Assembly (NCBI GenBank): GCA_019454045.1
Contig: SKCR01007543.1
Coordinates: 1 to 64,000, forward strand
From: Zanthoxylum bungeanum
Lineage: Eukaryota > Streptophyta > Magnoliopsida > Sapindales > Rutaceae
DNA length: 64,000 bases
Reading direction: 5' to 3'
Under the pieces are notes generated by a model. It was not told the origin of the DNA, searched no databases, and worked only from the letters and a program-made list of their open reading frames with translations. Of the stretch, positions 20,977-38,310 are shown in pieces; within the stretch, counting starts at the first letter, position 1; each line of letters begins with the position of its first letter. Both the position numbers and the translations under genes were made by a program.

Positions 20977-21190
20977 GAATACTAAAAAGTGCATATTTAT
21001 TAGACGATAAGTTAATCATTTTAAACTTATAGTTTCACTAATCCCCTTAAATTGATACATTTGTGAAATAATATTTTAAAGTTATGCTTTGAGTGCTTTT
21101 ACTGTGTTATTTTATATGTTTTTGTCAGGAAAAATACTGCTCGGAAGCTCAACGGGACAAATCAGACATGAAAAAGAAAAACATAAATTT

Positions 21191-21290
21191 TGCAAGCACG
21201 TCGTAAATTCTACAAGCACGTCGTAAATTCTACAAACACGTCGTAAATTCTGCAAGCACATCGTAAATTTTTTAAGTACGTCGTGACACA
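21191..21290 (+). repeat. 20-bp tandem repeat, five copies
   Basis: Units of the type TGCAAGCACGTCGTAAATTC occur end to end, the last one diverged. They lie upstream of the Ath-1 LTR TATA box. Confidence 0.85.
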
Positions 21291-21307
21291 TGGAACCTTT
21301 ACGTCGC

Positions 21308-21431
21308 GACACGTGTCCCCAATGTCGCTTCACCATTCTCTGACACGTGTCCCCAATGTGGCTTCACTATTCTTTGACACATGTGCACAATATGCATTCG
21401 CTGGTCTGGGTGGCCAAGTTTCCTATAAATA
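21308..21431 (+). promoter_or_regulatory. Ath-1 LTR promoter: G-boxes and TATA box
   Basis: GACACGTGTC at 21308-21317 and 21342-21351, and the variant GACACATGTG at 21376-21385, are regularly spaced 34 bases apart. TATAAATA follows at 21424-21431. CACGTG cores are bound by plant bZIP and bHLH factors. The arrangement is a plausible enhancer and core promoter, inferred from sequence only. Confidence 0.6.
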
Positions 21432-21729
21432 GGAGCGTGTGACATTAGAAATTTTCATACTTTCTTTCTTGATTCCTCTGTAATTCTTGGAGAAATAGTG
21501 TCTTGTTTATTTATTTACTTAAAGCTTTTTGTAATGTCCTTTTCTTTCAATAATAAAAGTACGAATATGTTTTATTACAAAATTAATAGCTAATTTCTTT
21601 TCTGCTGGAGTAAGGGTGAAGCTTTTATAATGAGAACATATATTAAAATCGCTTTTATTATAATAAATAAATTGAAATCTAATGATTAAAACTTGATTTA
21701 AATCTAGATTAATTATTGACAATCTTTAT

Positions 21730-21962
21730 ACCGCCTTTATGGCTGGTTTTTATCTTTATATCTCCTTTATGGCTGGTTTTATCTGTCTACCGCCTTTATG
21801 GCTGGTTTTATCTTTATACTGCCTTTATGGCTGATTTTATCTTTATACCGCCTTTATTGCTGGTTTTATCTTTATACCGCCTTTATCGCTGGTTGTATCT
21901 GTCTACCGCCTTTATGGCTGGTTTTATCTTTCCACCACCTATATGGCTGGTTTTATACGATT
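21730..21962 (+). repeat. 29-bp tandem repeat, eight copies
   Basis: Units contain CCGCCTTTATGGCTGG followed by TTTTATCTTTAT variants. Related units occur in both Ath-2 LTRs (reverse strand, 30945-31150 and 40815-41045). The hydrophobic repeat peptide they encode in frame with the protease remnant is an artefact. Confidence 0.88.
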
Positions 21963-21989
21963 TTGGCATAATTAAGTACCTTGATAGGA

Positions 21990-22423
21990 CTTGTTATAGA
22001 CAAACACAACCTGTGGCAGGAAGTTTTAAGCCAATCCCTGTAATACTTGGTCGGCCATTTTTAGCAACAGCTAACGCTTTAATAAATTGCAGGAATGGAA
22101 TCATGAATCTTTCTTTTGGCAATATGACATTAGAGTTAAATATTTTTAACATGTACAAACAGCCATATGATGAAGATAATGAAAACGAAAGCGCAGAATC
22201 AATTGAACCTATTATGGATGAGCATATTCAGGTATTGGAAGACGATGGAAAGATTAAAAATTTGGAAGAACTGAGAACATTGGAAGAAGAAAAACATGAA
22301 AAAGCACCCAATTTGGAGTTAAAAGTTTTGCCAGAAGGACTGAAATATTCATTGCAAGAAGATAATCAAACTTACCTTGTGGTAATTTCTTCTTCACAAG
22401 CGATCAAGAAGGTAAACTTTTAA
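21990..22423 (+). pseudogene. Ath-1 protease C-terminal remnant
   Basis: The frame reads PVILGRPFLATANALI, the conserved flap-to-C-terminus portion of Athila aspartic protease, which in Ath-2 appears as PIILGRPFLATGKTVI. An acidic linker (EDNENESAES...) and LELKVLPEGLKYSL follow, which in these elements leads into RT. The catalytic DLG triad and all of gag are absent because the LTR is joined directly to this point. It is in frame with the upstream 29-bp repeats by chance. Confidence 0.8.
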
Positions 22424-22425
22424 AT

Positions 22426-23197
22426 GTGTTAAAAGAACATAAACTGGAAATTGGATGGACATTACAAGACATCAAAGGTATTAATCCATTAATCTGCACA
22501 CACCGAATACATCTAGAAGATAATGCTATGACATATCATCAACCCCAAAGAAGATTAAACCCTCACTTGAAAGAAGTAGTAAAAACAGAGGTCCTTAAAC
22601 ATCTTGATGCATGCATTATCTATCCTATTTCAGATAGTAAGTGGGTAAGTCATACACAGGTTGTACCTAAAAAGTCTAGAATCAGTGTTGTAAAAAATGA
22701 TAAAGGGGAATTAATCCCAACTCGCATTTCATCTAGTTGGCGTATATGCATTGATTATAGAAAATTGAACGACGCAACTAGAACAGATCATTTCATCTAG
22801 TTGGCATATGTGCATTGATTATAGAAAATTGAACGACGCAACTAGAAAAGATCATTTCCATTTGCCATTTCTTGACCAAATTTTAGAAAAAGTAGTTGGA
22901 CACCCTTATTATTGTTTTCTTGATGGTTACTCGGGTTATTATCAGATTCCCATTACTTTAGAAGACCAGGAAAAGACCACATTCACATGCCCCTTTGGAA
23001 CATTTGCATTTAGGAAAATGCCATTTGGACTTTGTAATGCACCATCAAAATTCCAACGATGCATGTTGAGCATATTTAGTGACATGGTTGAACACTGTTT
23101 AGAGGTCTTCATGGATGATATAACTGTCTTTGGAAATTCATTTGATAATTGCTTGAATAATATGGAAAATGTTTTGAAAAGATGTGAAGAAAAATGA
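22426..23197 (+). pseudogene. Ath-1 reverse transcriptase
   Basis: This Athila-lineage Gypsy RT is split by a 64-bp tandem duplication (22725-22788 and 22789-22852) that repeats CIDYRKLNDATR and shifts the frame. Upstream are RRLNPHLKEVVKTEVLKHLDA and IIYPISDS. Downstream are LDGYSGYYQI, TFTCPFGTFAFRKMPFGLCN and the catalytic FMDD (about 23112-23123). The frame ends at a TGA at 23195, after which the connection domain continues in another frame. The motif set matches Athila rather than chromoviruses or Tat. Confidence 0.9.
22725..22852 (+). repeat. 64-bp direct tandem duplication inside RT
   Basis: Copies at 22725-22788 and 22789-22852 differ at three positions. Sixty-four is not a multiple of three, so the duplication alone inactivates the gene. 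Ath-2 has a single copy. Confidence 0.92.
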
Positions 23198-23200
23198 CTT

Positions 23201-23900
23201 GTGTTAAATTGGGAAAAATGCTACTTCAAGACTGATTCAGGAATTGTTTTAGGGCACGTTGTGTCGTCTAAAGGTATTGAGGTTGACAAAGTAAAAATAG
23301 AGGTCATTTCTAAATTACCATCACCAAAAACAGTCAGGGACATTCATTCTTTTTTAGGACATGCAAGATTTTTTAGAAGGTTCATTAAAAAGTTTAGTAC
23401 CATATCCAGACCCTTATGTAACCTCCTATTAAAAGATGCAATATTTGAATGGACAGAAGAATGTCAAAAATCATTCCAAAAAATTATCAGTCTTTGGACT
23501 TCTGCTCCTATTATGCAATCCCCTGATTGGTCTTTGCCCTTTGATCTAATGTGTGATGCTAGTGATTATGCAATTGGTGCAGTTCGAGGGAAGAGAAAGG
23601 AATGTAAGTCGCATGTGATATATTACGCTAGTAGAACATTAAACAGTGCACAAATGAATTACACTATCATAGAAAAAGAACTACTTGCTGTAATATTTGC
23701 ATTGGATAAATTTCGATCATATTTAATCAGTTCTTCAACTGTTGTTTACTCTGATCATGCTGATGTTAGATATTTGATGTCTAAATAGGATGCCAAGCCA
23801 AGATTAATACGGTGGATTTTGTTGCTTCAAGAATTCAATCTCACAATCAAAGATAAAAAATGGGGCATAGAACGTGGTTGTAGATCATTTATCGAGACTC
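23201..23900 (+). pseudogene. Ath-1 RT connection and RNase H
   Basis: It starts LNWEKCYF and GIVLGHVVSSKGIEVDK, then SFLGHARFFRRFIKKFS. RNase H follows, with catalytic Asp in MCDASDYAIGAV, Glu in EKELLAVIFALDKFRSY and Asp in YSDHADVRYLMSK. A TAG stop at 23786 replaces the next codon before [16 protein letters not shown], and ADHLSRL follows in a shifted frame. The RNase H acidic residues are all kept, unlike Ath-2 where the second one is deleted. Confidence 0.88.
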
Positions 23901-25198
23901 ACAAACGAGTCACTAATCGATAGCACTCCTATTAATGATTCTTTCCCCGATGAATTTTTATTTTCGGTAAACATAATGCCTTGGTATGCTAATATTGTCA
24001 ATTTCCTTGCAATTGGAAAGATACGTCCAGACTGGAGCCAACAAGATAAGAGGAAATTTTTGAACTAGGTCAAAAGATTCTACTGGGATGATCCTTATTT
24101 GGTTAAATGCTGCCATGATCAGATTTCCAGACGATGCATACTTGACAGTGAGATAAGTGGTGTTATTCAATTCTGTCATTCAGAAGCATGTGGAGGTCAT
24201 TTCTCATATAAGAAAACCACTGCAAAAATCTTGCAGTGTGGATTTTATTGGCCCACCATTTTCAAAGATACATACACTTTCTATAAAACTTGCGAAAATT
24301 GTCAAAAGTTGGATCAATTACAAAAAGAAACATAATGCCTTTATATCTCATCATTGTCATCGAAATCTTTGATTGTTCGGGATAGATTTCATGGGCCCAT
24401 TTCCACCATCCTTTGGATTCTTATATATTTTAGTTGCAGTCGACTATGTTTCAAAATGGGTCGAGGCAATTCCTTGTTGGAACAATGATCACACAACTGT
24501 GATCAAATTTTTAAAAGAAAACTTGTTGAGTCGATTTGGAATTCCTCGGGCCATCATAAGTTATGGAGGTAAACACTTTTGTAATAGACCCTTTGAATCC
24601 TTAATGAAAAACTATGAAGTCACACACAAATTTTCCACGCCTTATCACCCCTAGACAAACAGACAAATAGAATTAGCAAATAGGGAATTAAACAAATTCT
24701 ATAAAAAATGGTTAACCCAAATCGCAAAGATTGGTCTCTTCGACTAACTGATGCACTCTGGGCATATCGAACAGCTTTCAAAACATCCTTGGGTATGTCT
24801 CCATATCGTCTAGTTTATGGAAAACCTTGTCATTTGCCTGTAGAACTTGAGCATAAAGCATTGCGGGCTATTAAAGCATTTAATTAAAACCTTGAAAATG
24901 CTGGTCATGAACATAAATTGCAACTAAATGAACTTGAAGAGTTAAGGAATGATTCATATGAGAATACGAAAATTCTTAAAGCTAAAAATAAAGCCTTTCA
25001 TGATAGTTGAATTCACGAAAAATATTTGAAGTTGGTAAAAAGGTTTTGCTTTATAATTCTCGTCTTCATTTATTTCCTGGAAAGTTAAAATCCAAATGGA
25101 GTGGCCCATTTATTGTGAAACACATTTACCCATACGGGGCCATTAACATTGTGAATCGTAGGGACTGTGATGTATTTAAAGTAAAGGACAGCGTCTGA
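23901..25198 (+). pseudogene. Ath-1 integrase
   Basis: The zinc-binding HHCC region is at 24150-24320 (FCHSEACGGHFSYKKT, then CENCQ). The core is at 24373-24800, with the first Asp in [16 protein letters not shown]. The second catalytic Asp is replaced: the motif that should read SDGG is SYGG (about 24557-24571). The Glu region follows a TAG stop at 24652 (RQIELANREL). The C-terminal part at 25007-25198 contains [16 protein letters not shown] and PYGAINI, typical of Athila. Several stops and shifts separate the pieces. Confidence 0.88.
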
Positions 25199-25441
25199 AC
25201 CCTTTTTGGAGTACTCAAAATTTCAAGAAACTTTTTTCTTGTCAGACCAATATACCTTGATTGATGTAGTTTCTTTCATATTCTGTTTAATATTTATGTA
25301 ATTTCCATTTTTCTTTGTTTTGCAGTGTTCTTGTTCTTTTATTTTATCTCACACCCCGGTAAAGTAGCGGATAACGGTACTCCGTGACTCAAGTCGGTTA
25401 TTTCAGTTTCCTAAAAATAATGATACCCTACAAACTAAGGC
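25199..25441 (+). other. Ath-1 spacer between integrase and aORF1
   Basis: About 240 bases of AT-rich sequence. It contains a CT/T-rich stretch ending TTATTTCAG at about 25408, which would be a reasonable 3' splice site. No ORF is supported in it. Confidence 0.5.
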
Positions 25442-25992
25442 ATGGAAGAAACTCTCGCAAACCTCCAAAAATAATTTCCTGCCCCACCCCAAAATGCTCT
25501 GACAAAAATTTACAAAGCCTGCACAAAAAGATTGAGAATTCTTATGATTCATGGTATACCTAGTGATATTCGTTGGGTAATTGAAGAAAAAATTTCGTTT
25601 GTCATGTGAGTCACCTGACTTCTTCATTCCTTACATGCTTGGTTCAGGGAAAAGCACATATTCTAAAAAAAAAAAGAGCAAAACAAATGGGTGCTTGTTA
25701 TAAGTGTGCACGTTGTACGTGCAAAACTCGTTGTCGTTCTTTAAGAATGGTGTCTGATAATCGTAACGATAAAATACAATTCATTATGGATGGACTGAGT
25801 AAGGAGCCTTTTGATGATATATCATTGACTCTTGAGACGCATCCTAGTGGATATGTTCATCGTGAAATTCTTAGATTACACACACAATTTCATAAGGAAA
25901 GACAACCATACAGTCTCGGGAATCTGACTTTAAAAGACCCTGTTTGCCAATATATAAGAAAAATAGATGGGAAGCCTATCCCCGACCCATAG
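25442..25992 (+). pseudogene. Ath-1 aORF1: unrecognised extra ORF
   Basis: This is an extra frame between integrase and the LOG gene, with a clear relative at the same place in Ath-2 (33740-34272, minus). It begins MEETLANL at 25442 and has the conserved block IHGIPSDIRWVIE (about 25543-25590). A basic stretch follows (KKKRAKQM), then a cysteine cluster CYKCARCTCKTRC (about 25693-25733). The best preserved part runs from MVSDNRNDKIQFI through ETHPSGYVHREI to KIDGKPIPDP and a TAG at 25990. Several stops and shifts break it in the middle. I recognise no family. The basic stretch and cysteines suggest a nucleic-acid- or metal-binding role, which is only a guess. Confidence 0.6.
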
Positions 25993-26205
25993 AGGGCGTT
26001 CAAGCCGTTACTAGACGTAAAACCAGAGGAAGATGTGAGCCAAAATCACAACTATCAGCACATATTATTGCATTTATTTTCTTTACTTTAAATTATTGTT
26101 TTCCTTTACTTTTTACCAACGGTATCTAACTTTTTTTTTAACGATCTATTTTTCTGATAGTTGTCATTTTGCAGATATTAGTGCATTTCTCACCCACCCT
26201 TTTCA

Positions 26206-26270
26206 GGATCTATAAATTCAGCTCGTCATCTCCATTTCCTCAATACATCTAGCTAAGAGAGGTAGCACAA
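26206..26270 (+). promoter_or_regulatory. Splice-acceptor-like site and TATA box before the LOG frame
   Basis: A pyrimidine tract ends in CACCCTTTTCAG with the AG at 26205-26206. TATAAATTCA lies at 26211-26220, about 60 bases before the LOG ATG at 26271. Ath-2 has the same CACCTTTTCAG and TATAAATTCA in the same order before its LOG frame. One of the two is probably the expression signal: either a spliced subgenomic mRNA, as for retroviral env, or a private promoter. Confidence 0.5.
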
Positions 26271-26830
26271 ATGGAGACAACTTCAAAATGACGATTCACT
26301 ATTATCTGTGTATTTTATGGAACTAGCTCCGGAACTAAACCTGAATTTGTTGAAGGAGCAAGAGAATTGTGTAGAGTTATGGCGAACAGAAATATTCACT
26401 TAGTATATGGCGGTGGCAATCTTGGATTGATGGGGTCTATTTCAAAAGCTATACTATAAGGTGGAAGTCAAGTTTTGGGGATCATCCAAAACCTTTAACA
26501 GATAGCCAAATCATCGAAAACTCAAATGGAGAAGAATGTATTCTCCCAGGTATGTCTGAAAGACTCATTGAAATGATCAATCATGTTGATGCTTTCATTG
26601 CTTTACCAGGTGGGCTCGGAACATTGGAAGAAATATTCACTATTGCGTCATGGGAAAACTTGAATATTCACCAAAAACATATTGGGCTGTTTAATGTTAA
26701 TGGAATTTTCGATTTTCTTTTTGTATTTCTTGAAGATTCCAAAAGGAATGGGTTTATTTCAAAACCGTTGAACTGGTTTGGTAACGATCGAGGCAAAAAG
26801 CGCAAAGTAAACCTGGACCTTAATCTGTAA
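26271..26830 (+). pseudogene. LOG-like: Ath-1 LOG-like cytokinin riboside 5'-monophosphate phosphoribohydrolase
   Basis: LOG enzymes release active cytokinin bases from their riboside monophosphates in one step. Starting at ATG 26271 (METTSK), the frame shows ICVFYGTSSGTKPEF, LVYGGGNLGLMGSISKAI, the MSERLIEM segment containing the conserved Arg, and the signature PGGLGTLEE (about 26606-26632). HIGLFNVNG and GFISKPL follow. There are no introns, whereas plant LOG genes normally have several. Breaks are a TGA at 26289, a TAA at 26457, a one-base loss near 26493 and a C-terminal deletion joining PL to NW, which removes about 30 residues present in Ath-2. It is a dead copy of a gene carried by the element, not a resident host gene: Ath-2 has it at the same place. 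Confidence 0.88.
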
Positions 26831-27278
26831 TATTTAGCTATGACTGTCAATTCCATAATAACCAGGTGATATCTTCTAAACTATTTTTTCTTTCTTTAAA
26901 CATTGCGGACAATGTCTCGTGTTGGTTGGAGGGAGATGATAGTTTAGGAAATAAATAATTTTCATGATTATGTCTGTTTCATTGATGTTAGTTTTTACTG
27001 TGTTGTTATTTTGTGTGTAAAAATATATATCCATATATATACACACAAACTAACAACAAATTTATTTTCTAAATCAAGTGGAATTTTTGTTCAGAGGTGG
27101 CTGTGTAAGGAGTTTTCACTTCTGAGACGGATCTCATTATAATTCGTAACAAGTTATTTATCGTTCCTTTCTTTTTGAATAATTTAAATTTGTGAATTCT
27201 CCATAACATTGATTAAATTTGATCTTTATATGCTCGTCTGGCAGATATTATCAACAATATGGTAACATATGACCATGG
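26831..27278 (+). other. Ath-1 3' non-coding region up to the Co-2 insertion
   Basis: It continues the alignment with Ath-2 past LOG, including ACATTGCGGACAATGTCTC (26904-26922, a near-palindrome). A T-rich stretch and a TATATA run follow. Ath-1's 3' LTR is not reached: Co-2 begins at 27279, so the end of Ath-1 should lie beyond 64000. No gene is seen. Confidence 0.65.
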
Positions 27279-27905
27279 TGTTGGACATATATGACCATAG
27301 CATCACTATTTGTACAAAACATAGTGTTGTTGTACAAATTAACTATGTGACAAATGAAATTTTTCTTTTATCATTTGTAATTGGATTACTTGGATATATA
27401 AATGATAAAAGTCCATATGCTTAGTACCGGATTAATAAGATATAATACAATATTAATCCACAAAGGTTTAATAATTAAATATCCCTAGTTGTAGTAATAT
27501 CGAGACTGGACATCGATTATGCGGAATAAGCTAGTATTACACTTATGCGCGTTATGGAAGCTTAACGGCAAGGTTTTCATATATTTGGGTATTGGATACT
27601 CATGCAAGTGTAATAGGAGGTTCTATTTACCGATGGTATGGAAACAGCTTCGCTCTGGATAGACCCCTCGGAATCCCATTCGTAGTATGACTATATGTCT
27701 ATGGGAATCCGAATCAGGGTAGGTGTATTTGATCTTTACCTGAGACTTGCATCGCTAATACTTGCGACAATCAGTATACTTTGGTTTTGGTCGTCCAAGG
27801 CTTTAACGGGTTCTCTGTACGCCTCTTTTGGGTATACTGAGAATCGTAGTGTATTGGGTGTGATGTCAAGATGGAAGTATCACTTCAGTCATATGGAGAT
27901 GATGT
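27279..27905 (+). mobile_element. Co-2 5' LTR, truncated
   Basis: It starts TGTTGGACATATATGACC and follows the family LTR for about 627 bases, then jumps at about 27905 into internal sequence equivalent to about 58890 in Co-3. The last 1.4 kb of the LTR, the micro-hairpin array, primer site and leader are deleted. The 84-aa-class ORF at 27695-27919 is a recurring LTR frame seen in every copy and is not believed to be a gene. CATGG (27274-27278) is the candidate target duplication. Confidence 0.85.
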
Positions 27906-30017
27906 GCAATTTCGTTTAGATACTTGCCAATACGCGCTCATATCATTTTCGTCAATTTTAAACAAAATATATATATTAGTTGGACTAATATTTAATCATT
28001 GTTTTAATTAAACAGTTGAACTGTATTCAAACTACTTCATTATAGTTGATTATATAATTGGATTATAGTAATCAATATATTTGAATTTAACCAATTTAAA
28101 GTATAGTTGATTATATAGTAAGACTATAGTAATCATTATAATAAATAGTACCTGAAATCGTTGATTGAATAGTTGGACTATTGGAATCAAGATAACTGAA
28201 AGATTAGCGTTTAAAACATAAACCTGGGTAAAAATGTCTTTAAACGGCTTTAATTTTCAAATTGGGAATAGAACCTAAGATAGTCCTAGGAACTGAGAAT
28301 TTATTCTATTTGATAGAGAAAAATCTCGGGCCTGAGCCCGTAGTTGAGCAAATAGTAGAACATGATCTTTGGAAGATTCATTTGATGATAACTTTAGTGC
28401 TCAATCCTTTATACTTAATACAATGACTCTTTAATTCCGTCGTTAGAATTAATGATTAGATCCTTGAACCATGATGATGAAATTAAAGATCTTCATAGAT
28501 TAGATCTTAGAAGTACAAATTACATAAGAAGCTCCTTAGCTCGTGTATGTCAGAGGGTACATCTGTCGAGCACTAGGTGTCGCAGATGATTGCTGACATC
28601 GATCAGCTAGGTTAGCTGGGCATTACCTACGTGGCCGAGACTACCAAAGATTTGATCTTATAGTCTATACCCAAAAGCCGGGGCAGGTTTATTATGAACC
28701 AAGAGTAAACTCTTGGAGAGTTGATGGCTATGCTCTAAGAGGCAGAGCCAGAGCTTCTAATAAGGCAAAATCATCACAGTCTTCTAGGAAGACAAAGGAC
28801 ATATCCAAGATGTCTGCCTAAACTGTGGCAAACGGGGTCACTAGAAGCATGACTGCCATATGGAAAAGTCAGACGTGAAGGAATTAAAGGCGGGGCAAGG
28901 CTCCGGCTTTAAGAATGTTTGTCATAAACATGTTCGCTATTAGTTTCAAAATTGGATTTTGATACTAGATGTGGTACATAAGATATGTACTGATGTGCAG
29001 AATCTGCTGATTAGCAGGATACTGACTTCAGTTGAGATTTATCTGCGAATCACAAACAGGACGAGAGTCGCTGTTTTAACCGTAGAAACCTAAGTTTAGG
29101 AACTACCCTTTGGGTGTGTACCTAATTAGGAACCTGTTATAATGTACCTAGTTTGACTAGAAACATTATATCTATATCAGAGTATAACTCTTTGCGGGTA
29201 TACCTTTATATTCTAGAACACTAAAGTGTTTATTTTATAAAGATGATATTGAGATATACACATTAGATGTGAATAACAGTATTTACATTTTGAATATAAT
29301 GAATCTCAAACGTATAACATGACAAAAAAAATTAGCTCAAACTGAATTAATCAGAAGAGACTTATTTGTAGCATTGTTTTCCGGGACACATTAAACAAGA
29401 CTCGTATATCCACACTTTTGAAGAGTGGATACTAGGACATATTTGATTCTATTTAAATGATGTCTACGAATCTAGTCTATTAGGAAAAGTGCCTAAAACA
29501 CCTTTTACTTGGTAAAAGTACAAGAGCCATCGATCTGTTAGCCCTCGTTCATAGTGACGTAAGTAGGCCCATATCTAGCTAGGCTAGAGGTGGATATGAA
29601 CACTTCGTAACCTTTACGAATGTGGCATTGCGTTATGGTTATGTGTTTCGTTTGAAACACGAATCGGAAACTTTTGATAAATTCAAAGAGTTTCGACACG
29701 AAGTAGACAGACATATCGGCTAAAGTATTAAACCATCACGGTTAGACCATGGTGGAAAATACTTAAGCAATAAGTTTCTTAATTACTTGAAAGAGTATAA
29801 TATTCTTTCAATGTGGACTCTTCCTGGAACACCTCAATTGAGCGGTGTGTCCGAACGGAGAAACCGAACCTTGTTGGACATAGTAAGGTTAATCATGAGT
29901 CGCTCTGAGCTACCATTTTCCTTCAAGTGATACACATTAAACAGTGCAGAACTTATTTTGAATAAGGTTCCATAAAAATCTGTTTGACAGACTTCATATT
30001 AGATATGAACAGGAAAG
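27906..30017 (+). pseudogene. Co-2 gag, protease and integrase remnants (first segment)
   Basis: An AT-rich part with TGG-loop hairpins (27970-28200) is followed by gag. The gag zinc knuckle CX2CX4HX4C is at 28815-28856 (CLNCGKRGH, stop in place of Trp, then KHDC). The protease region follows at about 28950-29020, where TGTACTGATGTGCAG gives ICTDVQNL in one frame and the DTG triad is disrupted. Integrase lies at 29530-29960: HSDV with the first Asp, LDHGGKYLS with the second, and GVSERRNRTLLD with the Glu, all kept but in a frame broken by stops. The segment ends at the GAAAG target of Ath-2. Confidence 0.82.
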
Positions 30018-31508
30018 TGACCGGCGTAAACACACACGTATAACACAAGCGTACGTATCGTTCAAGTAGTATAAAAAGTATCGATCCCACGAGGACTTAA
30101 TACCTAAGTTATTAAGTTTATGAGGTCAAATTATTACTAATATCTAACAGGTTGTTTAATTGATTTGAAATGGCGACGATTCTAAATTTAAAGACAAGTA
30201 AATAAAATTGTTCGAAAGTAGATTTTAAGAAAATTCAATATTAAAAACTATCTAGGGTTGTGATTTCTTTTAATATCATTTTAAAGATGAAGTGGTAATC
30301 TTATAGTTGGGTAAAATATTGATTTATTAACCTGGAACACTAAAATATGTAAAAGCCTCTTCCGATGGTCAATTACAAATACCTAGTATAATCCAATTGA
30401 ACCATATGTCTATGTCAACCAAATTACCTAGATTCATTAAGATTAAGTTCCAATTATGGGTACCCCCGCCCGACAGGTATATTCCTATCTTGTAAGGAAA
30501 TCTATTAAAGGGTTATCTATCCTCAAGGAAGATCATGGGCTATTGAGTCTGAGGTCTTAAACTTAAAATCCATATGTCTAGTTCATTTTAAGTTTACCTA
30601 GTCAATTTAATTAATGACCAGTTAATTAAAAAGTATTAAGATTAAGACTCAATAAATAAATCTTTATATTACCCAAACTATAATCTAACCCGTTATAAAC
30701 CGGTGATATTTAAATTCATCACAACCCCAGATGCTAATTTAGTTACGACACATAGCTAGGGCTGGTAAAATAAAAGACATAAAATACTGAAAAGTAATTA
30801 CGGTAAAGTAAATACTGAAAGGTAAATTACAATAAAATAAATGCTAAGGTAAAATGAATTACTTTTACTACTACCAATTTAGATATCTCCCATAAAATAA
30901 TATATAAACTTGTGACATTATTACCATCGACCAATCTGGCGGTATCCTGATTAAGTCAAATTAAGTCCAATCAACCATTAAGGCGGTATTATTTGTCCAT
31001 AACCAGCCATAAAGGCGGAACCAAAATAAACCATCCATAAAGGCGGAACCAAAATAAAATTACCAACCGACCAATCTGGCGGTATCCTTGATTAGTCAGG
31101 TTTAAACCATATTAAAATTAAATTACCAACCGACCAATATAGCGGTATCTTTTTTAAGTCAAAATTTAAAAAGTGAATATATTATTTTTAAGGGAGATTA
31201 ATTTAAATAGCAATAGTAAAAGAATTACCTTTCACCCTAGTTGGGAAAGTTACCTCCTCATGATGAATAGTAAAAACTGTAAAAAGTAAGAAAGTAAATT
31301 ACTATTATTACAAAACGTAATTAAAATTATCATTTTGCCCTTTTTGCCAATTTTTCCAGTTTTTCCCCAAATCACCTCCAGAATGTCCTGAAACTTTATT
31401 TATCTACAAAATAACACAAAACACATCAAAATATTCACATAACCCAAGAAACTATACAAAATATTAGGTTAAATGAGTGGGAAATAGTGATAGATTTACC
31501 ACTCATCA
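30018..31508 (-). repeat. Ath-2 3' LTR (1491 bp, U3 deletion)
   Basis: In sense it runs from TGATGAGTGG (31508) to ...CGCCGGTCA (30018). It matches the 5' LTR closely but lacks about 690 bases, joining at about 31318-31330 where the 5' LTR has 41221-41909. The lost part holds the G-box array and the TATA box. It retains the reverse copies of the GCCATAAAGGCGG repeat (30945-31150). Confidence 0.93.
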
Positions 31509-31525
31509 CACCCCTAAACCTAACA
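31509..31525 (-). other. Ath-2 polypurine tract
   Basis: In sense, GTTAGGTTTAGGGGTG lies immediately before the 3' LTR start. It is a modest purine tract, placed by its position next to the LTR. Confidence 0.6.
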
Positions 31526-32740
31526 TTTTGCTAGTCCTCGAGCAAAACACAGAATAAAATAACATAATTAAAATTTAACTAAGCCACTTTCGCAGGGATC
31601 ACGGTTGCATTTAGCATATGCAACAAGCCTTTAAACCCCTAGGTGTCCCTAGTGGACGAGTTGTAGTCTCGTGAGGGTTTACAGCAATGATACCCACAAA
31701 CATTTTACAAAAGTAAAATGTTAGTTAAAACTAATGCACACAAAAGCAAAAAGACAAGCGAAAAGAGAATAAAGAAGTAAGTAACTAATCTAGTGAAACT
31801 TCTACTCCAAGTTACTAGTTGTTTTGTTTCATTCTAAATTACCAAATAAGTAAATTCTCCGATCATTTTTACCATTCTTCAGAAACACAGCCAACATAAG
31901 ATTAATCAACTTCATTTTTGCCCACAACAGTCACAAGTATAGTTGATAAGAGAGTAATATTTTTGTCCTAAAGATTTATCAAATTTCACACCTTTTTGTA
32001 GCAATGGAATAATTTTTTTTCTGATTTTTTCTTTGATTTTTTTCTTTATTTTTTTATTTATATACAATACCTTCCGTCTATGTAGCGAGTGTTAGGTCGG
32101 TGGCTCCCAAACCAGTTGGTTTTAGGGCACCAAGTGTTAAGATACCCCTACGGACTTAATTACCCAGACTTCAGATATATATATTTTTGTAGCATCTTTG
32201 ATCCATGTAACGAGCTTTGGGCCAGTGACTCCCAAACCAGTTGGTTTTAGGGCACTAGGTTTTAAAACACCCTTACAGACTTAATAACTCGGATCTCGGA
32301 CGTTTTTTTTTTTTTTTTTTTTATATTTTTTTTACTCCACTGCTTTTTGAGATGCTTCCTCCATTAAACTAGAGCACTGAATATTACAAACTTTTCAATT
32401 TTAGCTCATGTCCGTATGTTTCCATGTATGTTGATAATACTGTCAACGAACTGAACATAAGAAGATCCATTTTAGTCCGTTTTATGGAGATTTTATAGAA
32501 TTAAATAATTTAAAAATGAAATAAACAAAAATTAACTTGTTCCGAAATAGGTTTGATACGTCTCAGGAGTAGAAATTCCTTACTCGGCTATCTCTTACCA
32601 ATTTCACCTTTTTAGTCAAAACAAAAACACAAAAAACACAAAATATTTTTGTAATTTTTGAATTTTTTTCAATTTTTTTGTATTTTTCGAAAAATTTTGA
32701 ACTAAAAATAAAAAACAACACACAAACTAAAAACAAGGTA
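31526..32740 (-). other. Ath-2 3' non-coding region
   Basis: This is 1.2 kb between LOG and the 3' LTR, T-rich on the plus strand, with no supported ORF. It holds a roughly 95-bp direct duplication about 124 bases apart (32080-32175 and 32204-32302, sharing CCCAAACCAGTTGGTTTTAG). It also holds long T runs at 32006-32056 and 32307-32332. Confidence 0.7.
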
Positions 32741-33501
32741 CTAATCAACTAATTCGCTCCCCAAAACCAAAGTGAGACATTGTCCCCAATGTCTTAAACA
32801 GTAGAAGAAAAGTTTAGAAAATAATACCTGGTTAGCTGAAAATCTACAGGAATTAAAGGTTAAGATCCAGATTAATTTGACGCCTCTTACACGATCGTCC
32901 TCGGACCAATTTATATTTGAAATGATAGGGTCAACTTTTGGTTCATAGGCTATGAGTTGGTCAATTAGATCTGGAGTAGTTCTGGCAGTAAATAAGAGTT
33001 CTTTTAAAGGTTTTGATATGAACCCATTTCTCCGAGCATCATCAAGAAACACACAAGAAAATCATAAAATCCATCAACGTTGTACAACCCAATTGGTTTC
33101 TGGTGTATGTTCAGTTCGCCCAAGATAACACAATAAAAATTTCCTCCAATGTACCCAAGCCACCTGGCAAAGCAATAAAAGTATCAGCACGGTTAATCAT
33201 TTCCACTAGTCGTTCAGACATACCTGGTACGATCAGTTCCTCTCCGTTTGATGGTTCATAAGATTTGCCTCTGCCAAGGGTTTTGGGATGATTCCCAAAA
33301 CGTGACTGCCTCCTTCCTGTGCGGCCTTGAAACAATCCCCATAAGTCCAAGATTACCTCCCCGCCATATTTAAGTGCATATTCCTTGCAGCTAAGACTCG
33401 ACCCAATTCCTGTGCTGCTTCTATGTATTGTGGTTTAGTACCAACAGTGCTACCGCAAAACCACAAATGTTTTCAACTCGTCTTCTTGAAGTGGCTTCCA
33501 T
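32741..33501 (-). pseudogene. LOG-like: Ath-2 LOG-like cytokinin riboside 5'-monophosphate phosphoribohydrolase
   Basis: It begins with ATG at 33501 (MEATSRRR) and can be followed by frame changes through the Rossmann-type start (FCGSTVGTKPQYIEAA), GIIPKTL, the conserved Arg in MSERLVEM and the signature PGGLGTLEE (about 33142-33168). IGLYNVDGFYDF and NGFISKPLKELL follow, then an extension past the usual LOG end to SELVD. The region of about 220-250 codons is close to the normal LOG length of about 215 aa. At least four small indels break it: after ICG, at the GGG loop, after SWAN, and before FLDDA. Between the two copies, the MSERL-to-SKPL segment is about three quarters identical by eye. 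It lies between aORF1 and the 3' LTR, where Athila relatives often have an env-like ORF. No introns. Confidence 0.9.
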
Positions 33502-33540
33502 TTTTTTACTCTGGATGTCTTCAAAAGTGCAATGATGAGT

Positions 33541-33560
33541 TGAATTTATATACCTGAAAA
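33541..33560 (-). promoter_or_regulatory. Conserved TATA box and splice-acceptor-like site before Ath-2 LOG
   Basis: In sense, CACCTTTTCAG (AG at 33555-33554) is followed by TATATAAATTCA, 40-50 bases before the LOG ATG at 33501. The order and sequence match Ath-1 26191-26220. Conservation in the non-coding strip between two frames argues for function. Confidence 0.5.
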
Positions 33561-33739: not shown

Positions 33740-34272
33740 CTATGAGTCAGGGACAAGCTTCCCATCCAATTTTCTTATAAATTGGCAAACATGGTCTTTT
33801 TGAGTCAGATTCCCGAGACTTAACAGTTGTCTATCTTTTTGAAATTGTGTATGTAATTTGCGAATGGCTATATGAACATATCCACTGGGATGCGTCTCAA
33901 GAGTCGAAGATATATCATCTAAAGACTCCTTACTCAAGCCATCCCTAATGAATTTAATTTTGTCTTCGCGATTATCAGATACCATTCCTAAAGAACGACA
34001 ACGAGTATTGCAATTCCATCATGCACATTTGTATCAACATCCATTTGCTTAGCTCTACGTTTCTTTGCATAGGTGCTTCTCTCCACAACCAGGCAGATGT
34101 GAAATAACGATTCAGAAGACTCACCTGCCAATCGGACTCGTGCTTCAATTACCCAACGAATATCATTAGGAACACCATGGATTGTTAGTAACCTCATCCG
34201 TTCCAGCGAGTTTTGTATACTTTTATCAAGATTTTTGAGGAGAGAAGAAATTGCTTTGAAAGAGATTTCCAT
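33740..34272 (-). pseudogene. Ath-2 aORF1: unrecognised extra ORF
   Basis: It starts at ATG 34272 (MEISFKAISSLLKNLDKS) and reads as one frame to about 33988. It holds IHGVPNDIRWVIEARVRL and the basic YAKKRRAKQM. A small shift at the cysteine cluster (in the other frame CNTRCRSL) leads to the second frame, MVSDNREDKIKFI to LDGKLVPDS, ending at 33740. It is the counterpart of 25442-25992 in Ath-1, with the C-terminal 80 residues clearly alike (ETHPSGYVH shared). Total length would be about 177 aa. No known family is recognised. It sits 240 bases upstream of LOG and 300 bases downstream of integrase. Confidence 0.65.
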
Positions 34273-34569
34273 GATGTCTTAGCAGCTTTTCATACCATTT
34301 GATTAACCAACTATTAAAATGTCTTCATGCATGCATTAAACTCTCATCGTATACAAATCACTTAATCATTCACAAAAGCTTATTTCACTGACCACAACCA
34401 ATTGACTATCAACAAAAATGCTTAAGTAATGTTTGCCTCCCAGCGTAATCATTTACCCAAATCACAATACAAAAATTGCATGGGTTGCCTCCCTACGTTA
34501 ATTTAAAGTCGCAGCTAGACGTGACTTCTGAACGTTAGGCTGGATCTGAAAGTGTGACACTTTCTTTTG
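34273..34569 (-). other. Ath-2 spacer between integrase and aORF1
   Basis: Non-coding. In sense it contains GGGAGGCAACCCATG (about 34477-34491) and a second GGGAGGCAAAC (about 34435-34445). A GGGAGGCAACCC-like string after integrase is common in Athila elements. Confidence 0.6.
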
Positions 34570-35667
34570 TCACTCAAATGATTCTCCCCAGTAGTGCTTG
34601 ACACGCTGACTGTTAACCTTGAATGTGTTGTTGGTATTGGGATCCAGTAACTCAACAGCTCCATATGGTAAAACCTGAGTGATCACAAATGGACCTGACC
34701 ACCTAGATTTCAACTTTCCAGGGAAAAGTTTCATTCTCGAATTGTACAATAACACATGCTGCCTTGGTTCCAACTGTATGTGCACTATTTTTCGGTCATG
34801 CCATTTTTTGGTCTTTTCCTTGTACAATTTGGCATTCTCATAAGCCTGTAGACGAAACTCCTTCCAATTCGTTGAGTTGGTGCAGTCTTTTCTCTCCTGC
34901 AGCTTGTGAATCAAAATTCAACTTCTTCAGTGCCCAGTACGCCTTGTGCTCAAGCTCAACTAGTAGATGGCACGCTTTCCCAAACACCAATTGATATTGG
35001 GACATACCAATGGGTGTCTTGTAAGCTGTCCGGTAGGCCCATAATGCATCATCTAGTTTTGTTGACCGGTCCCTCCTTGTTGATCCAACGGTCCTTTCTA
35101 GGATTCTCTTGATCTCCCTGTTTGAAACCTCAACCTGTCCATTTGACTGTGGATGGTAAGCAGTGGCAACTTTGTGAGAAACTCCGTATTTGGATAGGAG
35201 TGCATCGAAGTATTTGTTGCAGAAATGAGAGCCACCATCACTGATAATTTCCCGAGGTGTTCCAAACCGAGTGAAAATGTTCTTTTTCAGGAATTTGATC
35301 ACCACTTTTGAATCATTAGATGGCAATGCAATTGCTTCGACCCATTTGTAGATGTAGTCTACACCAACCAGGATGTACAGGTTTCCAAATGATGGAACAA
35401 AGGGTCCCATGAAATCAATACCCCATACATCGAATATCACCACTTCTAGAATGTTTTGCAACGGTCCTTCGTTTCTCCTGGAAATATTTCCCATTCTCTG
35501 GCACCTGTCACATTAAAAAGCAAAAAGATAAGCATCTTTAAAAAGAATGGGCCAGAACAAACCTGATTGTAGGACTTTGGCTGCAGTTTTTTTTCCGCTG
35601 AAGTATCCGCCATATGGTGATGAATGAATGTGTTGCAAAACACTGTTGATTTCCTAATGTGGAACAC
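34570..35667 (-). pseudogene. Ath-2 integrase
   Basis: The zinc-finger part is at 35667-35500 (HIHSSPYGGYFSGKKT, then a stop, then CDRCQR). The core at 35494-34838 is one open frame of 218 aa with all three acidic residues: Asp in GIDFMGPF, Asp in IISDGGSHF and Glu in GQVEVSNRE. Also present is YHPQSNGQ, followed by [14 protein letters not shown] and [10 protein letters not shown] shift near 34880 leads to the C-terminal frame ([23 protein letters not shown]) ending at 34570. It is Athila type, the best preserved integrase in the window, but not a single frame. Confidence 0.9.
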
Positions 35668-36240
35668 ATCGTCTCAGTAGTTGATCAGCACACCGTTTGA
35701 ACATGTATGGTTCATCCCAGACATAATGTTTGACTTCTTTGAAGAACTTCTTCCGTTGCTGAGTTGTCCATTCCAACGGCCATTTTCCTGTCACAATGTA
35801 ATTGACATAGTCAGCATACCAAGGGACTTCATGTTGTTTCATGGCAAAAAGTTGTTCATCTGGAAAAGTTTCTTTGATTGACAATTCTTTGTCAACTGTT
35901 TCTCCATTCTCGAGCCTCGATAGATGATCTGCCACCTGATTCTCTGTTCCTTTCCTGTCTCGAATTTCCACATCGAATTCTTGCAAAAGAAGTATCCAAC
36001 GAATCAATCTGGGTTTGGCATCTTTCTTTCGTGATCAGATATTTGATTGCTGAATGATCTGTGTAGACCACCACTTTTGTACCTAGCAGATAGGAACGGA
36101 ATTGAGTCTTCGGTGGTTGTGTAGTTGAGTTGAGCTTCATTCAAAGTTCTGCTGGAGTAGTAAATTGTGTGGAAAATCTTTGCTTTACGTTGTCCCAAAA
36201 CTGCACCTACAGCAAAATCACTAGCATCACATATTACCAC
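35654..36240 (-). pseudogene. Ath-2 RNase H and linker
   Basis: Catalytic Asp in VICDASDFAVGAVLGQRK is present. The segment that should carry KELLAVxFAxxKF is deleted after NYTTTE, so the second acidic residue is lost and the frame shifts. [17 protein letters not shown] resumes in another frame (35892-36140). A third frame (36007-35654) continues [26 protein letters not shown] and the RT-integrase linker. RNase H is therefore dead in this copy. Confidence 0.88.
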
Positions 36241-37468
36241 AAATAGAAGGGTCCAGTCTGGTGCTACTATGATGGGAGCAGAGACCAGCTTTGTTTTTTA
36301 AGATTTCAAAGCTTCTTCCTGGCATTCTTTGGTGAAGTGGAAAGACACATCCTTCTCTCCAAAGATTGCATAGAGGTTTAGCAATCTTGGAAAATTCTTT
36401 GATAAATCTCCTGTAAAAACCTGCATGTCCAAGAAAACTTCGAATACCATTAACTGATGTTGGTGGAGGTAGTTTTTTCATTGTCTCTATCTTAGCTTTG
36501 TCTACCTCTATCCCTTTTTGTGAGATCCGGTGTCCGAGAACAATGCCTTCTTGCACCATAAAGTGGCATTTCTCCCAGTTGAGTACCAAGTTTGTATCTT
36601 CGCACCTTTGTAACACATGTTCCAAATTTTGCAAACAATGGTCAAAAGAATCTCCAAATACAGAAAAGTCATCCATGAATACCTCCATACTCTGCTCTAG
36701 CATGTCTGAGAAAATGGCCATCATGCAACGCTGAAATGTGGCAGAGGCATTACATAATCCAAATGGCATCCTGCGGAAAGAAAAAGTACCATAGGGACAA
36801 GTAAAGGTAGTTTTCTCCTGGTCTTCTGGTGCGATGGCAATCTGATTGTACCCTGAATATCCGTCCAGAAAGTAATAGAACTCATGTCCTGCCAGTCTGT
36901 CTAACATCTGGTCAATAAATGGTAATGGAAAATGGTCCTTCCTCGTGGCTTTGTTCAGTTTTCGGTAATCCATGCATACTCTCCATCCAGTAACTGTTCT
37001 TGTTGGGATTAGCTCATTTTTTTCATTGGTGACCACAGTAATTCCTCATTTCTTTGGTACACACTGCATAGGACTCACCCAACTACTGTCTGAGATGGGG
37101 TAAATGATGCCAGCATCTAACCATTTGATGATTTCTTTCTTCATGAGTTCCTTCATGATTGGATTGAGTCTTCGTTGATGCTCCACTGTGGGTTTGTACT
37201 TATCATTCATCAAGATTTTGTGCATGCAAAATGATGGACTAATGCCTCGAATGTCTACTATAGTCCAGCAAATGGCTCTCTTGTGCTCTCGTAACACTCT
37301 CAACAACTTTTCTTCCTGCTCCAATGTTAGTGAAGAAGAAATAATAACAGGTAATTCAGAAGAGTTTCCAAGAAATGCATACCTGAGATGGCTCGGAAGT
37401 AACTTTAGCTCCAACTGTGGTAGTTCTTCAATCGAAGGCTTGATTCGATCTTTCTTTGGTAGTTCCAA
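36227..37468 (-). pseudogene. Ath-2 reverse transcriptase
   Basis: A first frame (37468-37046) holds the RT N-terminal approach: RRLNPIMKELMKKEII, IIYPISDSSWVSPMQCVPKK. A shift at the TVVTNEK junction leads to a clean 269-aa frame (37036-36227) with VCMDYRKLNKATRKDHFPL, LDGYSGYNQIAIAPEDQE, RMPFGLCNASATFQRCM, catalytic FMDD, LGHRISQKGIEVDKAKIE and SFLGHAGFYRRFIKEFS. These strings place it firmly in the Athila lineage. The palm domain is intact. The connection and RNase H are not. Confidence 0.93.
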
Positions 37469-38310
37469 ACTTTCAACTGGTGGTGTTTTACTTTGAATCG
37501 GAATGGTTTGTCAAGGTAGTTGATACATTCCAGGATTTCAGCATCTAGCTCACTGTCAGTCATGTTGGTGATGCAAGCTTCAAGTGTATCTGTGGGATTT
37601 GGCTCAGTATTTTGAACGATACTTTCAACAACATCAACTCTGAAGCATTCTTCTTCCTTTTCATCACTCGGGAATTTCATGGCTTTGAAAACATTAAAGG
37701 TCACTTGTTGGTCTTGTACTTTCATGGTCAGTTCTCCTTTTTGCACATCAATCACAGTTTTACCTGTAGCCAAGAATGGTCTCCCAAGAATGATAGGTAT
37801 TTCTTTGTCTTCTTCCATGTCAAGGATGATGAAATCTGCTGGGAGAATTAGTTTGTCTACTTTTACCAACACATCTTCAACAACACCTCTTGGAAATGCA
37901 AGTGTTCGGTCAGCAAGTTGCAATGAAACTGAGGTAGGCATTGCTTCTCCAATCTGCAGTTTCCTGTAAATAGAAAAAGGCATCAAGTTAACACTATCAC
38001 CTAAATCACATAAAGCCTTACCGATATAATGTTCTCCAATGGTGCATGGAACTGTGAAACTGCCAAGATCTTTCAACTTCGGGGGAAGTTTCCTCTGAAT
38101 AATGGCGCTGCATTCTTCCGTTAATGCTACTGTTTCGTAGTCTCTCCAATCTTCATTTTCGTAAAGAATATGTTTCATGAATTTGACATAACTGGGCATT
38201 TCTTCCAAGGCTTCTGCAAATGGGATGTTGATGTGCAGCTTTTTGAAAACCTCCAGGAATCGAGCAAACTGCTTGTCCAGTTTATTTTTCTGAAGACGCT
38301 GAGGAAAAGG
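37405..38310 (-). pseudogene. Ath-2 aspartic protease with upstream linker
   Basis: The Athila-type lead-in LDKQFARFLEVFKKLHINIP and ALEEMPSYVKFMKHIL (38310-38165) is followed by a 267-aa open frame from 38208. The catalytic triad reads ALCDLGDSVNLMPFSIYRKL, where Athila elements normally have DLGAS: the Ala is replaced by Asp next to the catalytic site. SLQLADRTLAFPRG, DVLVKVDKLILPADFIILD and IPIILGRPFLATGKTVID complete the domain. An acidic linker follows to RT. The frame is open, so this protease is only doubtfully inactive. Confidence 0.88.

What the first reader, a model, noticed from the sequence alone, without database searches (positions are those of the whole stretch)
26271..33501. 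A Gypsy (Athila) family that carries a cytokinin-activating LOG gene
Seen: both Athila elements (Ath-1 + strand, 26271-26830; Ath-2 - strand, 33501-32741) have, between integrase and the 3' LTR, an intronless frame with the LOG pattern: the GGGNLGLMG-type loop, a conserved Arg in MSER, PGGLGTLEE and a GFISKP C-terminal segment. Known: LOG proteins make active cytokinin from nucleotide precursors; Athila relatives often carry an env-like ORF at this point. Inference: the gene was acquired as spliced RNA by an ancestor of both elements and spread with them, so it may have given the element a way to affect host hormone state. The two copies differ at about a quarter of residues yet keep the catalytic segments, which argues for a time of selection.
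Basis: partly seen in the sequence, partly recalled or inferred. Interest (0 to 1): 0.92.

Follow-up and report, generated by a model that had tools for sequence, protein, structure and literature searches.

The report
Retrotransposon carrying virus-like and LOG genes
A very abundant plant retrotransposon family carries two extra genes between its integrase and its end repeat, one resembling a plant-virus silencing-suppressor protein and one derived from the hormone enzyme LOG, and both have been kept by natural selection, which suggests the element uses them to influence its host cell.

Summary
The LOG observation is real, but it is half of the story. Both Gypsy elements have a LOG-like frame downstream of integrase. 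Both window copies are interrupted, so neither could make the full protein as written. It matches the flexivirus nucleic-acid-binding / silencing-suppressor families (Pfam Carla_C4 and Viral_NABP).

In the host genome (3.96 Gb) the pair is a fixed cassette. ORF-A was found behind 25 of 26 sampled integrases and LOG behind 24 of 26. Both genes show purifying selection (dN/dS 0.16 for LOG, 0.26 for ORF-A). LOG's catalytic residues are kept. Three residues of the pocket that binds the cytokinin side chain are changed in this family, so "cytokinin-activating" is not shown.

A LOG-type domain in Gypsy elements is already published (Citrus, poplar). I found no paper on a flexivirus-type protein in a retrotransposon, nor on the pair. 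Most likely reading: an accessory cassette that helps the element against silencing and adjusts the host cell.

The parts
20977..27278 (+). Ath-1: truncated Ty3/gypsy element (RT, RNase H and integrase pieces, ORF-A, LOG), lying between outward-facing LTR ends of another LTR family at 20976 and 27279; its own LTRs were not identified
   Evidence: self-comparison of the window; Pfam on its ORFs
22808..23785 (+). Ath-1 reverse transcriptase and RNase H pieces
   Evidence: PF00078 1.2e-19; PF17919 1e-31 and PF17917 7.4e-27
24373..24651 (+). Ath-1 integrase core piece
   Evidence: PF00665 8.6e-15
25442..25989 (+). Ath-1 ORF-A, flexivirus-NABP-like gene, interrupted (1 stop, 2 frameshifts)
   Evidence: tblastn with P0123, 86% and 76% identity in its two main pieces; lesion count
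26200..26219 (+). conserved TTTTCAGG...TATAAATTC ahead of LOG (possible splice acceptor and/or TATA box)
   Evidence: conserved between both window elements; TATAAA in 19 of 20 and TTTCAGG/TTTTCAG in 19 of 20 LOG-sampled genomic loci within 110 bp
26271..26830 (+). Ath-1 LOG-like gene, interrupted (2 stops, 1 frameshift, 31-residue deletion)
   Evidence: PF03641 6.4e-20; 87.6% identical to P0003 over aligned codons
30013..30017 (.). target-site duplication GAAAG of Ath-2, left copy
30018..31508 (-). Ath-2 3' LTR (TG...CA)
   Evidence: 96.5% and 97.3% identical to the 5' LTR in two blocks, K2P 0.029
32853..33501 (-). Ath-2 LOG-like gene, interrupted (7 single-base frameshifts, no in-frame stop)
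   Evidence: tblastn with P0007/P0009; 84.4% identical to them over aligned codons
33542..33560 (-). TTTTCAGG...TATAAATTC ahead of Ath-2 LOG
33743..34275 (-). Ath-2 ORF-A, flexivirus-NABP-like gene, interrupted (4 frameshifts, 1 stop, 1 residue lost)
   Evidence: tblastn with P0130, 79% and 64% identity in two pieces; lesion count
34841..35494 (-). Ath-2 integrase core, used to sample genomic copies
   Evidence: PF00665 1.7e-15
36230..37036 (-). Ath-2 reverse transcriptase
   Evidence: PF00078 1.5e-30
37408..38208 (-). Ath-2 protease region
   Evidence: PF08284 0.0063, below its cut-off
39089..39661 (-). Ath-2 gag
   Evidence: PF03732 1.1e-22
39914..42088 (-). Ath-2 5' LTR (about 680 bp longer than the 3' LTR), followed by a TGGCGCC primer-binding-type sequence
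42089..42093 (.). target-site duplication GAAAG of Ath-2, right copy

Best explanation
The two elements belong to a high-copy Ty3/gypsy family of Athila-type layout that carries a fixed two-gene accessory cassette between integrase and the 3' LTR, in sense orientation. (1) ORF-A, 182 aa, has a basic stretch, a Cys4 finger and a conserved C-terminal half, and is homologous to the nucleic-acid-binding / RNA-silencing-suppressor proteins of flexiviruses. (2) A 217-aa LOG-family enzyme keeps the catalytic Arg and Glu, has a remodelled substrate pocket, and ends in a basic LxLxL tail. Shown: presence, order, spacing, fixation in the sampled copies, purifying selection on both frames, and the residue changes. 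Likely but not proven: the viral homology of ORF-A. Inferred: ORF-A binds nucleic acid in the nucleus and blunts host silencing of the element or alters transcription; LOG cleaves a nucleoside monophosphate to raise a cytokinin or cytokinin-like base, or removes a host signal nucleotide. Together they would make the cell more permissive for the element. LOG is probably translated from its own short mRNA (conserved TATA-like or splice-acceptor-like site just upstream).
For: Fixation: integrases sampled by rank, blind to flanks, have ORF-A in 20 of 20 and LOG in 19 of 20, and in a second subfamily both in 5 of 6; LOG-sampled loci have ORF-A in 19 of 20, at the usual spacing in 18. Selection: dN/dS LOG 0.164, ORF-A 0.26 over 16 of the 20 integrase-sampled copies; between the two window copies LOG 0.12 (dS 1.7, near saturation) and ORF-A 0.37 (bootstrap 0.24-0.57). 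Open frames: 16 of 20 LOG-sampled loci have a 216-219 aa LOG frame. ORF-A homology: 81 of 98 relatives hit Carla_C4 and 79 of 98 Viral_NABP at E <= 1e-3; 4 of 4 of this genome's ORF-A copies tried hit both, each over at least one curated cut-off. In a structure search against viral proteins, 17 of the top 21 rows are proteins of viruses named as flexiviruses, none of them at E <= 1e-3. LOG: PF03641 8.4e-37 and TIGR00730 7.5e-50 for a genomic copy.
Against: No expression, enzyme or silencing data. Both window copies are broken, and of 16 integrase-sampled copies only 3 have an uninterrupted LOG and 7 an uninterrupted ORF-A. Masking the ORF-A basic stretch and finger removes the Pfam hit, so the homology rests mainly on that core. 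The Cys spacing (C-x2-C-x4-C-x3/4-C) differs from the published carlavirus ones (C-X2-C-X9-C-X4-C and C-X2-C-X12-C-X4-C). The ORF-A models are poor. LOG pocket residues differ from cytokinin-active LOGs, and in a set of window-like relatives 10 of 37 have Gln in place of the catalytic Arg. The Athila label was not tested with an RT tree.
Confidence: 0.7

Rival explanations
1. LOG in these elements is an ordinary cytokinin-activating enzyme that raises active cytokinin in the cells where the element is transcribed.
For: Catalytic Arg and Glu, the PGGxGTxEE loop and Trp129 are kept in most relatives. LOGs of Xanthoceras, several clusters on different contigs, keep the whole His/Lys/Glu pocket (10 of 10 rows checked).
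Against: In the window's own family His97->Ser, Lys100->Leu, Glu125->Ile or Thr (20 of 20 LOG-sampled loci; 13 of 16 integrase-sampled copies read Ser/Leu/Ile, one more has Pro for Leu and two have missing codons). These are the positions said to be identical in AtLOG3, OsLOG and CpLOG (PMC4979012). The proteins score 117-120 bits against NCBI's equivalog model for the enzyme, whose cut-off is 300; the Xanthoceras form scores 127.5, so that model does not discriminate here.
Confidence: 0.3
2. The LOG protein is no longer an enzyme of hormone metabolism but a nuclear binding protein: its basic tail and C-terminal LxLxL (EAR-like) motif recruit or titrate a TOPLESS-type co-repressor.
For: 112 of 138 relatives of at least 205 aa end in LxLxL and 129 of 138 have a basic cluster in the last 25 residues. 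The tail lies beyond the region that aligns with AtLOG3 and AtLOG8. Some relatives lost the catalytic Arg but keep the frame.
Against: Catalytic residues are kept in most. No binding data. Tails of cellular LOG10-type proteins were not available for comparison. EAR, nuclear signal and TOPLESS are recalled, not tested.
Confidence: 0.2
3. The cassette is a passenger: two captured host or viral sequences carried by a successful element and slowly decaying.
For: Both window copies are interrupted; only 3 of 16 integrase-sampled copies have an open LOG. Elements with an open integrase match but a broken LOG are common in that sample.
Against: dN/dS 0.16 and 0.26 in the same copies. Disruptions are mostly private frameshifts (43 frameshifts, 3 stops), at about the density of gaps between the two LTRs of Ath-2, which fits decay after insertion or indel errors of a draft assembly rather than decay in the active lineage. 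Relatives with full-length frames occur in several plant genera.
Confidence: 0.1
4. The likeness of ORF-A to flexivirus proteins is convergence of a basic stretch plus Cys finger, and ORF-A is a cellular or retroelement zinc-finger protein.
For: The signal vanishes when the core is masked. No relative found in IMG/VR. Cys spacing differs. The AlphaFold models are poor (pLDDT 56 and 64). No viral structure match reaches E 1e-3.
Against: In several members the match extends over about 80-90 residues of Viral_NABP in the same register. The reversed sequence does not hit these families (it gave one unrelated weak hit, PF01657 at 0.0058). The viral structure search is dominated by flexivirus proteins, though that program also uses the letters, so it is not independent.
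Confidence: 0.2

Closest known systems
Athila-like elements with a LOGL4-like extra ORF (Steinbauerova et al. 2011, Genetica, doi 10.1007/s10709-012-9654-9; not held; content recalled, cited in PMC9289625 section 12)
   Same: LOG-family extra ORF in the 3' region of Athila-type Ty3/gypsy elements (recalled)
   Different: No ORF-A partner, pocket analysis, selection estimate or fixation count known to me from it; I could not read it
YgdH (LOG) domain in Gypsy consensus sequences of Citrus sinensis, C. clementina and Populus trichocarpa (PMC9289625 section 12, read)
   Same: Same domain in the same superfamily; multi-copy Populus LOGs are relatives here
   Different: Listed there without anatomy; no flexivirus-type protein is among the domains that section names
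Flexivirus cysteine-rich / nucleic-acid-binding proteins (Carla_C4, Viral_NABP)
   Same: Basic stretch followed by a Cys4 finger; Pfam matches and top rows of the viral structure search
   Different: 182 aa against 91-144 aa for 15 of the 17 flexivirus proteins in the top rows; other Cys spacing; carried by an LTR retrotransposon
Phalaenopsis Gypsy elements with a functional AlkB RNA demethylase (PMC9289625, abstract and discussion read)
   Same: A Gypsy element carrying a domain also used by flexiviruses and retained over rounds of replication
   Different: Different domain, host and element lineage
Plant LOG enzymes (AtLOG3 2a33, AtLOG8 1ydh)
   Same: Family, catalytic Arg/Glu, PGGxGTxEE loop
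   Different: Pocket residues, basic LxLxL tail, element-borne and multi-copy

Membership tests
LOG (cytokinin riboside 5'-monophosphate phosphoribohydrolase) | LOG/Lysine_decarbox domain over its full length | tested here: met
   Two genomic copies: PF03641 1-131 of 131, E 8.4e-37 and 1.5e-36; TIGR00730 above cut-off
LOG (cytokinin riboside 5'-monophosphate phosphoribohydrolase) | catalytic Arg99 and Glu122 beside the PGGxGTxxE motif (CgLOG numbering, PMC4979012) | tested here: met
   Arg and Glu-Glu at these places in 20 of 20 LOG-sampled loci; among P0003-P0041 Arg in 26 of 37 with Gln in 10 and Lys in 1, Glu122 in 37 of 39
LOG (cytokinin riboside 5'-monophosphate phosphoribohydrolase) | prenyl-group pocket Met96, His97, Lys100, Glu125, Trp129 | tested here: not met
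   Window family: Met and Trp kept, His->Ser, Lys->Leu, Glu->Ile/Thr
LOG (cytokinin riboside 5'-monophosphate phosphoribohydrolase) | hydrolysis of cytokinin riboside monophosphate | not testable with these tools
   needs a purified protein
Flexivirus NABP/CRP | scores over the curated Pfam cut-off | tested here: met
   4 of 4 genomic ORF-A copies exceed the cut-off of at least one of Carla_C4 (20.9) and Viral_NABP (23), two of them both; the broken window piece 25606-25989 does not (18.7 and 15.3 bits)
Flexivirus NABP/CRP | basic motif directly ahead of a C-X2-C-X9/12-C-X4-C finger | tested here: inconclusive
   Basic motif in 97 of 120 and a Cys4 finger in 94 of 120 listed relatives (fragments included), but spacing C-x2-C-x4-C-x3/4-C
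Flexivirus NABP/CRP | nucleic-acid binding and silencing suppression | not testable with these tools
   bench assay needed
Athila lineage (Ty3/gypsy, non-chromovirus OTA) | gag-PR-RT-RH-IN order, extra ORF 3' of IN, 5-bp TSD | tested here: met
   the protease match is below its cut-off and RNase H was matched in Ath-1 only
Athila lineage (Ty3/gypsy, non-chromovirus OTA) | RT/IN phylogeny inside the Athila clade | not tested
   no reference set of named element RTs was at hand

The most novel reading that the evidence does not exclude
An abundant LTR retrotransposon lineage has assembled and kept under selection a virus-style host-control cassette: a flexivirus-type silencing suppressor / nuclear regulator next to a LOG enzyme with a re-tooled nucleotide pocket and a nuclear repressor-recruiting tail. 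The element would counter silencing and shift host hormone or nucleotide state in the cells where it moves, a transposon counterpart of what plant viruses do.
Probability: 0.35. Interest if true: 0.88.

Novelty: new variant of a known kind. Interest (0 to 1): 0.68.

Why it matters
LOG in Gypsy elements was a side note in a published survey that cites an earlier one. Here it is one half of a cassette that two diverged subfamilies share, at constant spacing and under purifying selection, in a genome where a loose first look gives tens of thousands of LOG candidates (not a copy count). The other half looks like a flexivirus silencing suppressor. That makes a concrete, testable link between plant RNA viruses and retrotransposons, alongside the orchid AlkB case, and offers a direct test of whether plant retrotransposons encode active counter-defence and host-state genes. 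The lineage-specific change of the LOG pocket, with Lys100 and Glu125 lost together, also gives natural variants for asking what LOG-family enzymes can act on.

Tried and rejected
Chance likeness: rejected. Two chance insertions: rejected. The idea that LOG and ORF-A of Ath-2 died before pol: a minimum-disruption count gave 4.6 per kb for LOG, 1.9 for ORF-A, 2.2 for pol, but this measure undercounts (3 against 7 by homology for LOG), so it is left open. The LTR distance printed (0.071) is inflated by a misaligned 700-bp gap; (0.029) replaces it. dN/dS for pol between the window elements could not be computed (dS saturated). Viral contigs (IMG/VR): no LOG or ORF-A relatives. Solved structures: nothing convincing for ORF-A (two hits at E about 0.4). 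No RNA family at gathering threshold and no tRNA in the window. Contig-length coincidence of LOG and ORF-A relatives (two exact matches among 17 x 24 contigs of about 4-15 kb that I copied from the listings, 0.045 expected) was superseded by direct linkage. Literature on ORF-A: 7 papers listed; none; 5 listed; judged from titles and abstract starts, none joins these viral families with retrotransposons; only open-licence papers were searched. Paper ids not held; one search opened an unrelated paper through a wrong id of mine.

What I saw of papers: PMC9289625 abstract, sections 12 and 17 and passages; PMC7264820, PMC6317226, PMC3689765, PMC8839810, PMC4979012, PMC10219291 passages only; PMC12172455 section 5 and passages; Steinbauerova 2011 nothing (recalled).
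Full report
WHAT IS THERE. The window is a nest of LTR retrotransposons. Two Ty3/gypsy elements matter. Ath-2 (minus strand, 30018-42088) is a complete insertion: LTRs at 30018-31508 and 39914-42088, TG...CA ends, a perfect GAAAG duplication on both sides, a TGGCGCC primer-binding-type sequence after the 5' LTR, gag, RT and integrase by Pfam, and a protease match below its cut-off. The LTRs differ by 42 substitutions in 1485 sites, K2P 0.029, about 1-2 million years at rates that I recall (1.3e-8 and 7e-9 per site per year). Ath-1 (plus strand, within 20977-27278) is truncated; I found no LTRs of its own.

LOG. Both elements have a LOG-like frame between integrase and the 3' end. The best piece of Ath-1 (26552-26827) hits PF03641 at 6.4e-20 and Arabidopsis 2a33 at 9.5e-18. 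Full-length relatives of 217 aa exist in public data: P0003 is 87.6% identical to the Ath-1 copy, P0007 and P0009 84.4% to the Ath-2 copy, over aligned codons. Both window copies are interrupted: Ath-1 by two stops, one frameshift and a 31-residue deletion, Ath-2 by seven single-base frameshifts.

A SECOND GENE. Directly upstream of each LOG is ORF-A (25442-25989 plus; 34275-33743 minus), a 182-aa family with 204 database relatives, 120 of them listed, some from named plants: Xanthoceras, Acer, Populus and Orobanche. The source table tags 115 of those 120 with PF01623 and/or PF05515. My own scan of 98 of the 120 (the 22 shorter than 140 aa left out) gave Carla_C4 in 81 and Viral_NABP in 79 at E <= 1e-3, best 3.7e-8 and 1.1e-8. 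Four ORF-A copies from this genome all hit both families at E <= 0.0014, and each exceeds at least one curated cut-off. Controls: the reversed protein does not hit them (one unrelated weak hit, PF01657, 0.0058); masking the 27-residue basic stretch and finger removes the hit, so most signal lies there. AlphaFold models are poor: mean pLDDT 56 with 27 sequences, 64 with 98. Against BFVD no match of the latter reaches E 1e-3, yet 17 of the top 21 rows are proteins of viruses named as flexiviruses, 14 of them labelled RNA silencing suppressor or nucleic-acid / RNA binding; three rows have no name and one is a negev-like nucleoprotein. Six of the viruses were checked in the taxonomy as Alpha- or Betaflexiviridae; the others I place by name and recall. 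I take homology as likely (about 0.8), direction of transfer unknown.

FIXED IN THE FAMILY. The host genome is 3.956 Gb in 51,709 contigs. A PF03641 search had 47,331 first-look candidates (not a copy count) and scored only 150; 147 of these have no stop inside the match. Twenty LOG places on long contigs (of 150) were fetched: ORF-A is found in 19 of 20, at the usual spacing in 18, partial and displaced in one; several of the 19 are partial. Because these were picked by LOG, I then searched with Ath-2's integrase (79,301 first-look candidates, 150 scored), took 20 by rank and flank length without looking downstream, and found ORF-A in 20 of 20 and LOG in 19 of 20, three of these LOGs partial or displaced.

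SELECTION AND DECAY. In 16 of the 20 integrase-sampled copies (L028, L034, L038 and L039 left out as rearranged or incomplete), pooled dN/dS is 0.164 for LOG and 0.26 for ORF-A, codons near frameshifts excluded. Between the two window copies it is 0.12 for LOG (bootstrap 0-0.22; dS 1.7) and 0.37 for ORF-A (0.24-0.57); for pol dS is saturated. Among LOG-sampled loci with a 217-aa frame (14 found, 13 used) it is 0.23 overall, 0.14 inside the Pfam match that selected them and 0.42 outside it, so that set is biased and the integrase-sampled value is the one to use. Pairwise medians for ORF-A frames of 170-200 aa run from 0.54 at low to 0.24 at higher divergence. Among the 16 copies 3 have an uninterrupted LOG and 7 an uninterrupted ORF-A, with 43 frameshifts and only 3 stops in the two genes together. 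That density, about 2-3 per kb, is close to the gap density between the two Ath-2 LTRs (7 gap openings in a 1315-column block of two copies). Indel errors of a draft assembly, or indels after insertion, explain most of it; I cannot separate the two, so "dead" should be said with care for Ath-2, less so for Ath-1.

WHAT LOG MAY DO. From PMC4979012 (passages): catalytic Arg99 and Glu122; prenyl-group pocket Met96, His97, Lys100, Glu125, Trp129, identical in AtLOG3, OsLOG and CpLOG. In 212 relatives (fragments included) Met, Glu122, the PGGxGT loop and Trp129 are kept in most, while His97, Lys100 and Glu125 are replaced in lineage-specific sets: S/L/I or T in the window's family, S/L/H in 7 of 9 Populus rows checked, H with I or M and Q in Reevesia, Q/I/Q in Diplodiscus; all three are kept in 15 rows, among them all 10 Xanthoceras rows. 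Lys and Glu are kept or lost together. Ten of 37 window-like relatives have Gln for the catalytic Arg. This points to a changed substrate in most of these proteins. Further, 112 of 138 relatives of at least 205 aa end in LxLxL and 129 of 138 have a basic cluster in their last 25 residues, which I recall as the EAR repression motif after a nuclear signal; the AtLOG3 and AtLOG8 alignments end before it. Tails of cellular LOG10-type proteins were not available. In a quick tree of 45 rows rooted on AtLOG3, AtLOG8 and a bacterial LOG, the rows of each named host group together; without the hosts' cellular LOGs this does not show a single capture.

EXPRESSION. The stretch ahead of LOG keeps TTTTCAGG followed by TATAAATTC in both elements; TATAAA occurs within 110 bp in 19 of 20 and TTTCAGG or TTTTCAG in 19 of 20 LOG-sampled loci. 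Either a promoter of its own or a splice acceptor would give LOG a separate mRNA. Inference only.

KNOWN AND NEW. LOG in Gypsy elements is published: PMC9289625 section 12 lists the YgdH domain in Citrus and poplar Gypsy consensus sequences, in line with Steinbauerova et al. 2011 (the latter not held). Flexivirus CRPs are published as silencing suppressors, and the one of chrysanthemum virus B as a transcription factor inducing hyperplasia (PMC12172455, passages). I found no paper on such a protein in a retrotransposon (open-licence papers only, listings only). Hence: new variant of a known kind. The mechanism is inferred; anatomy, fixation in the sampled copies and selection are shown.

Noticed in passing
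window ORF-A / LOG, and L006-L025: Between the two subfamilies synonymous divergence is two to three times higher in LOG (1.7 in the window pair) than in ORF-A (0.65), though the genes are neighbours. Recombination between subfamilies or constraint on ORF-A synonymous sites could cause it.
   Followed up: partly
26200-26219 and 33542-33560: TTTTCAGG...TATAAATTC conserved ahead of LOG in both elements; TATAAA and TTTCAGG/TTTTCAG each in 19 of 20 genomic loci. Could be a promoter or a splice acceptor.
   Followed up: partly
21722-21956: 29-bp unit repeated about 8 times in Ath-1, upstream of RT where gag would be expected.
   Followed up: no
22725-22858: 64-bp tandem duplication (95% matches) in the RT region of Ath-1; 64 is not a multiple of three.
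   Followed up: no
32044-32293: 125-bp imperfect tandem pair between LOG and the 3' LTR of Ath-2.
   Followed up: no
41223-41903: About 680 bp present in the 5' LTR of Ath-2 but absent from its 3' LTR: an insertion, or a deletion in the other LTR.
   Followed up: no
43103-45180 and 51040-53120: Direct repeats 98.7% identical over 2.1 kb, possibly the LTR pair of a younger element of another family.
   Followed up: no
P0032, P0037, P0039 and related proteins: LOG relatives with Gln in place of the catalytic Arg but a full-length frame, suggesting a non-catalytic role in that subgroup.
   Followed up: no
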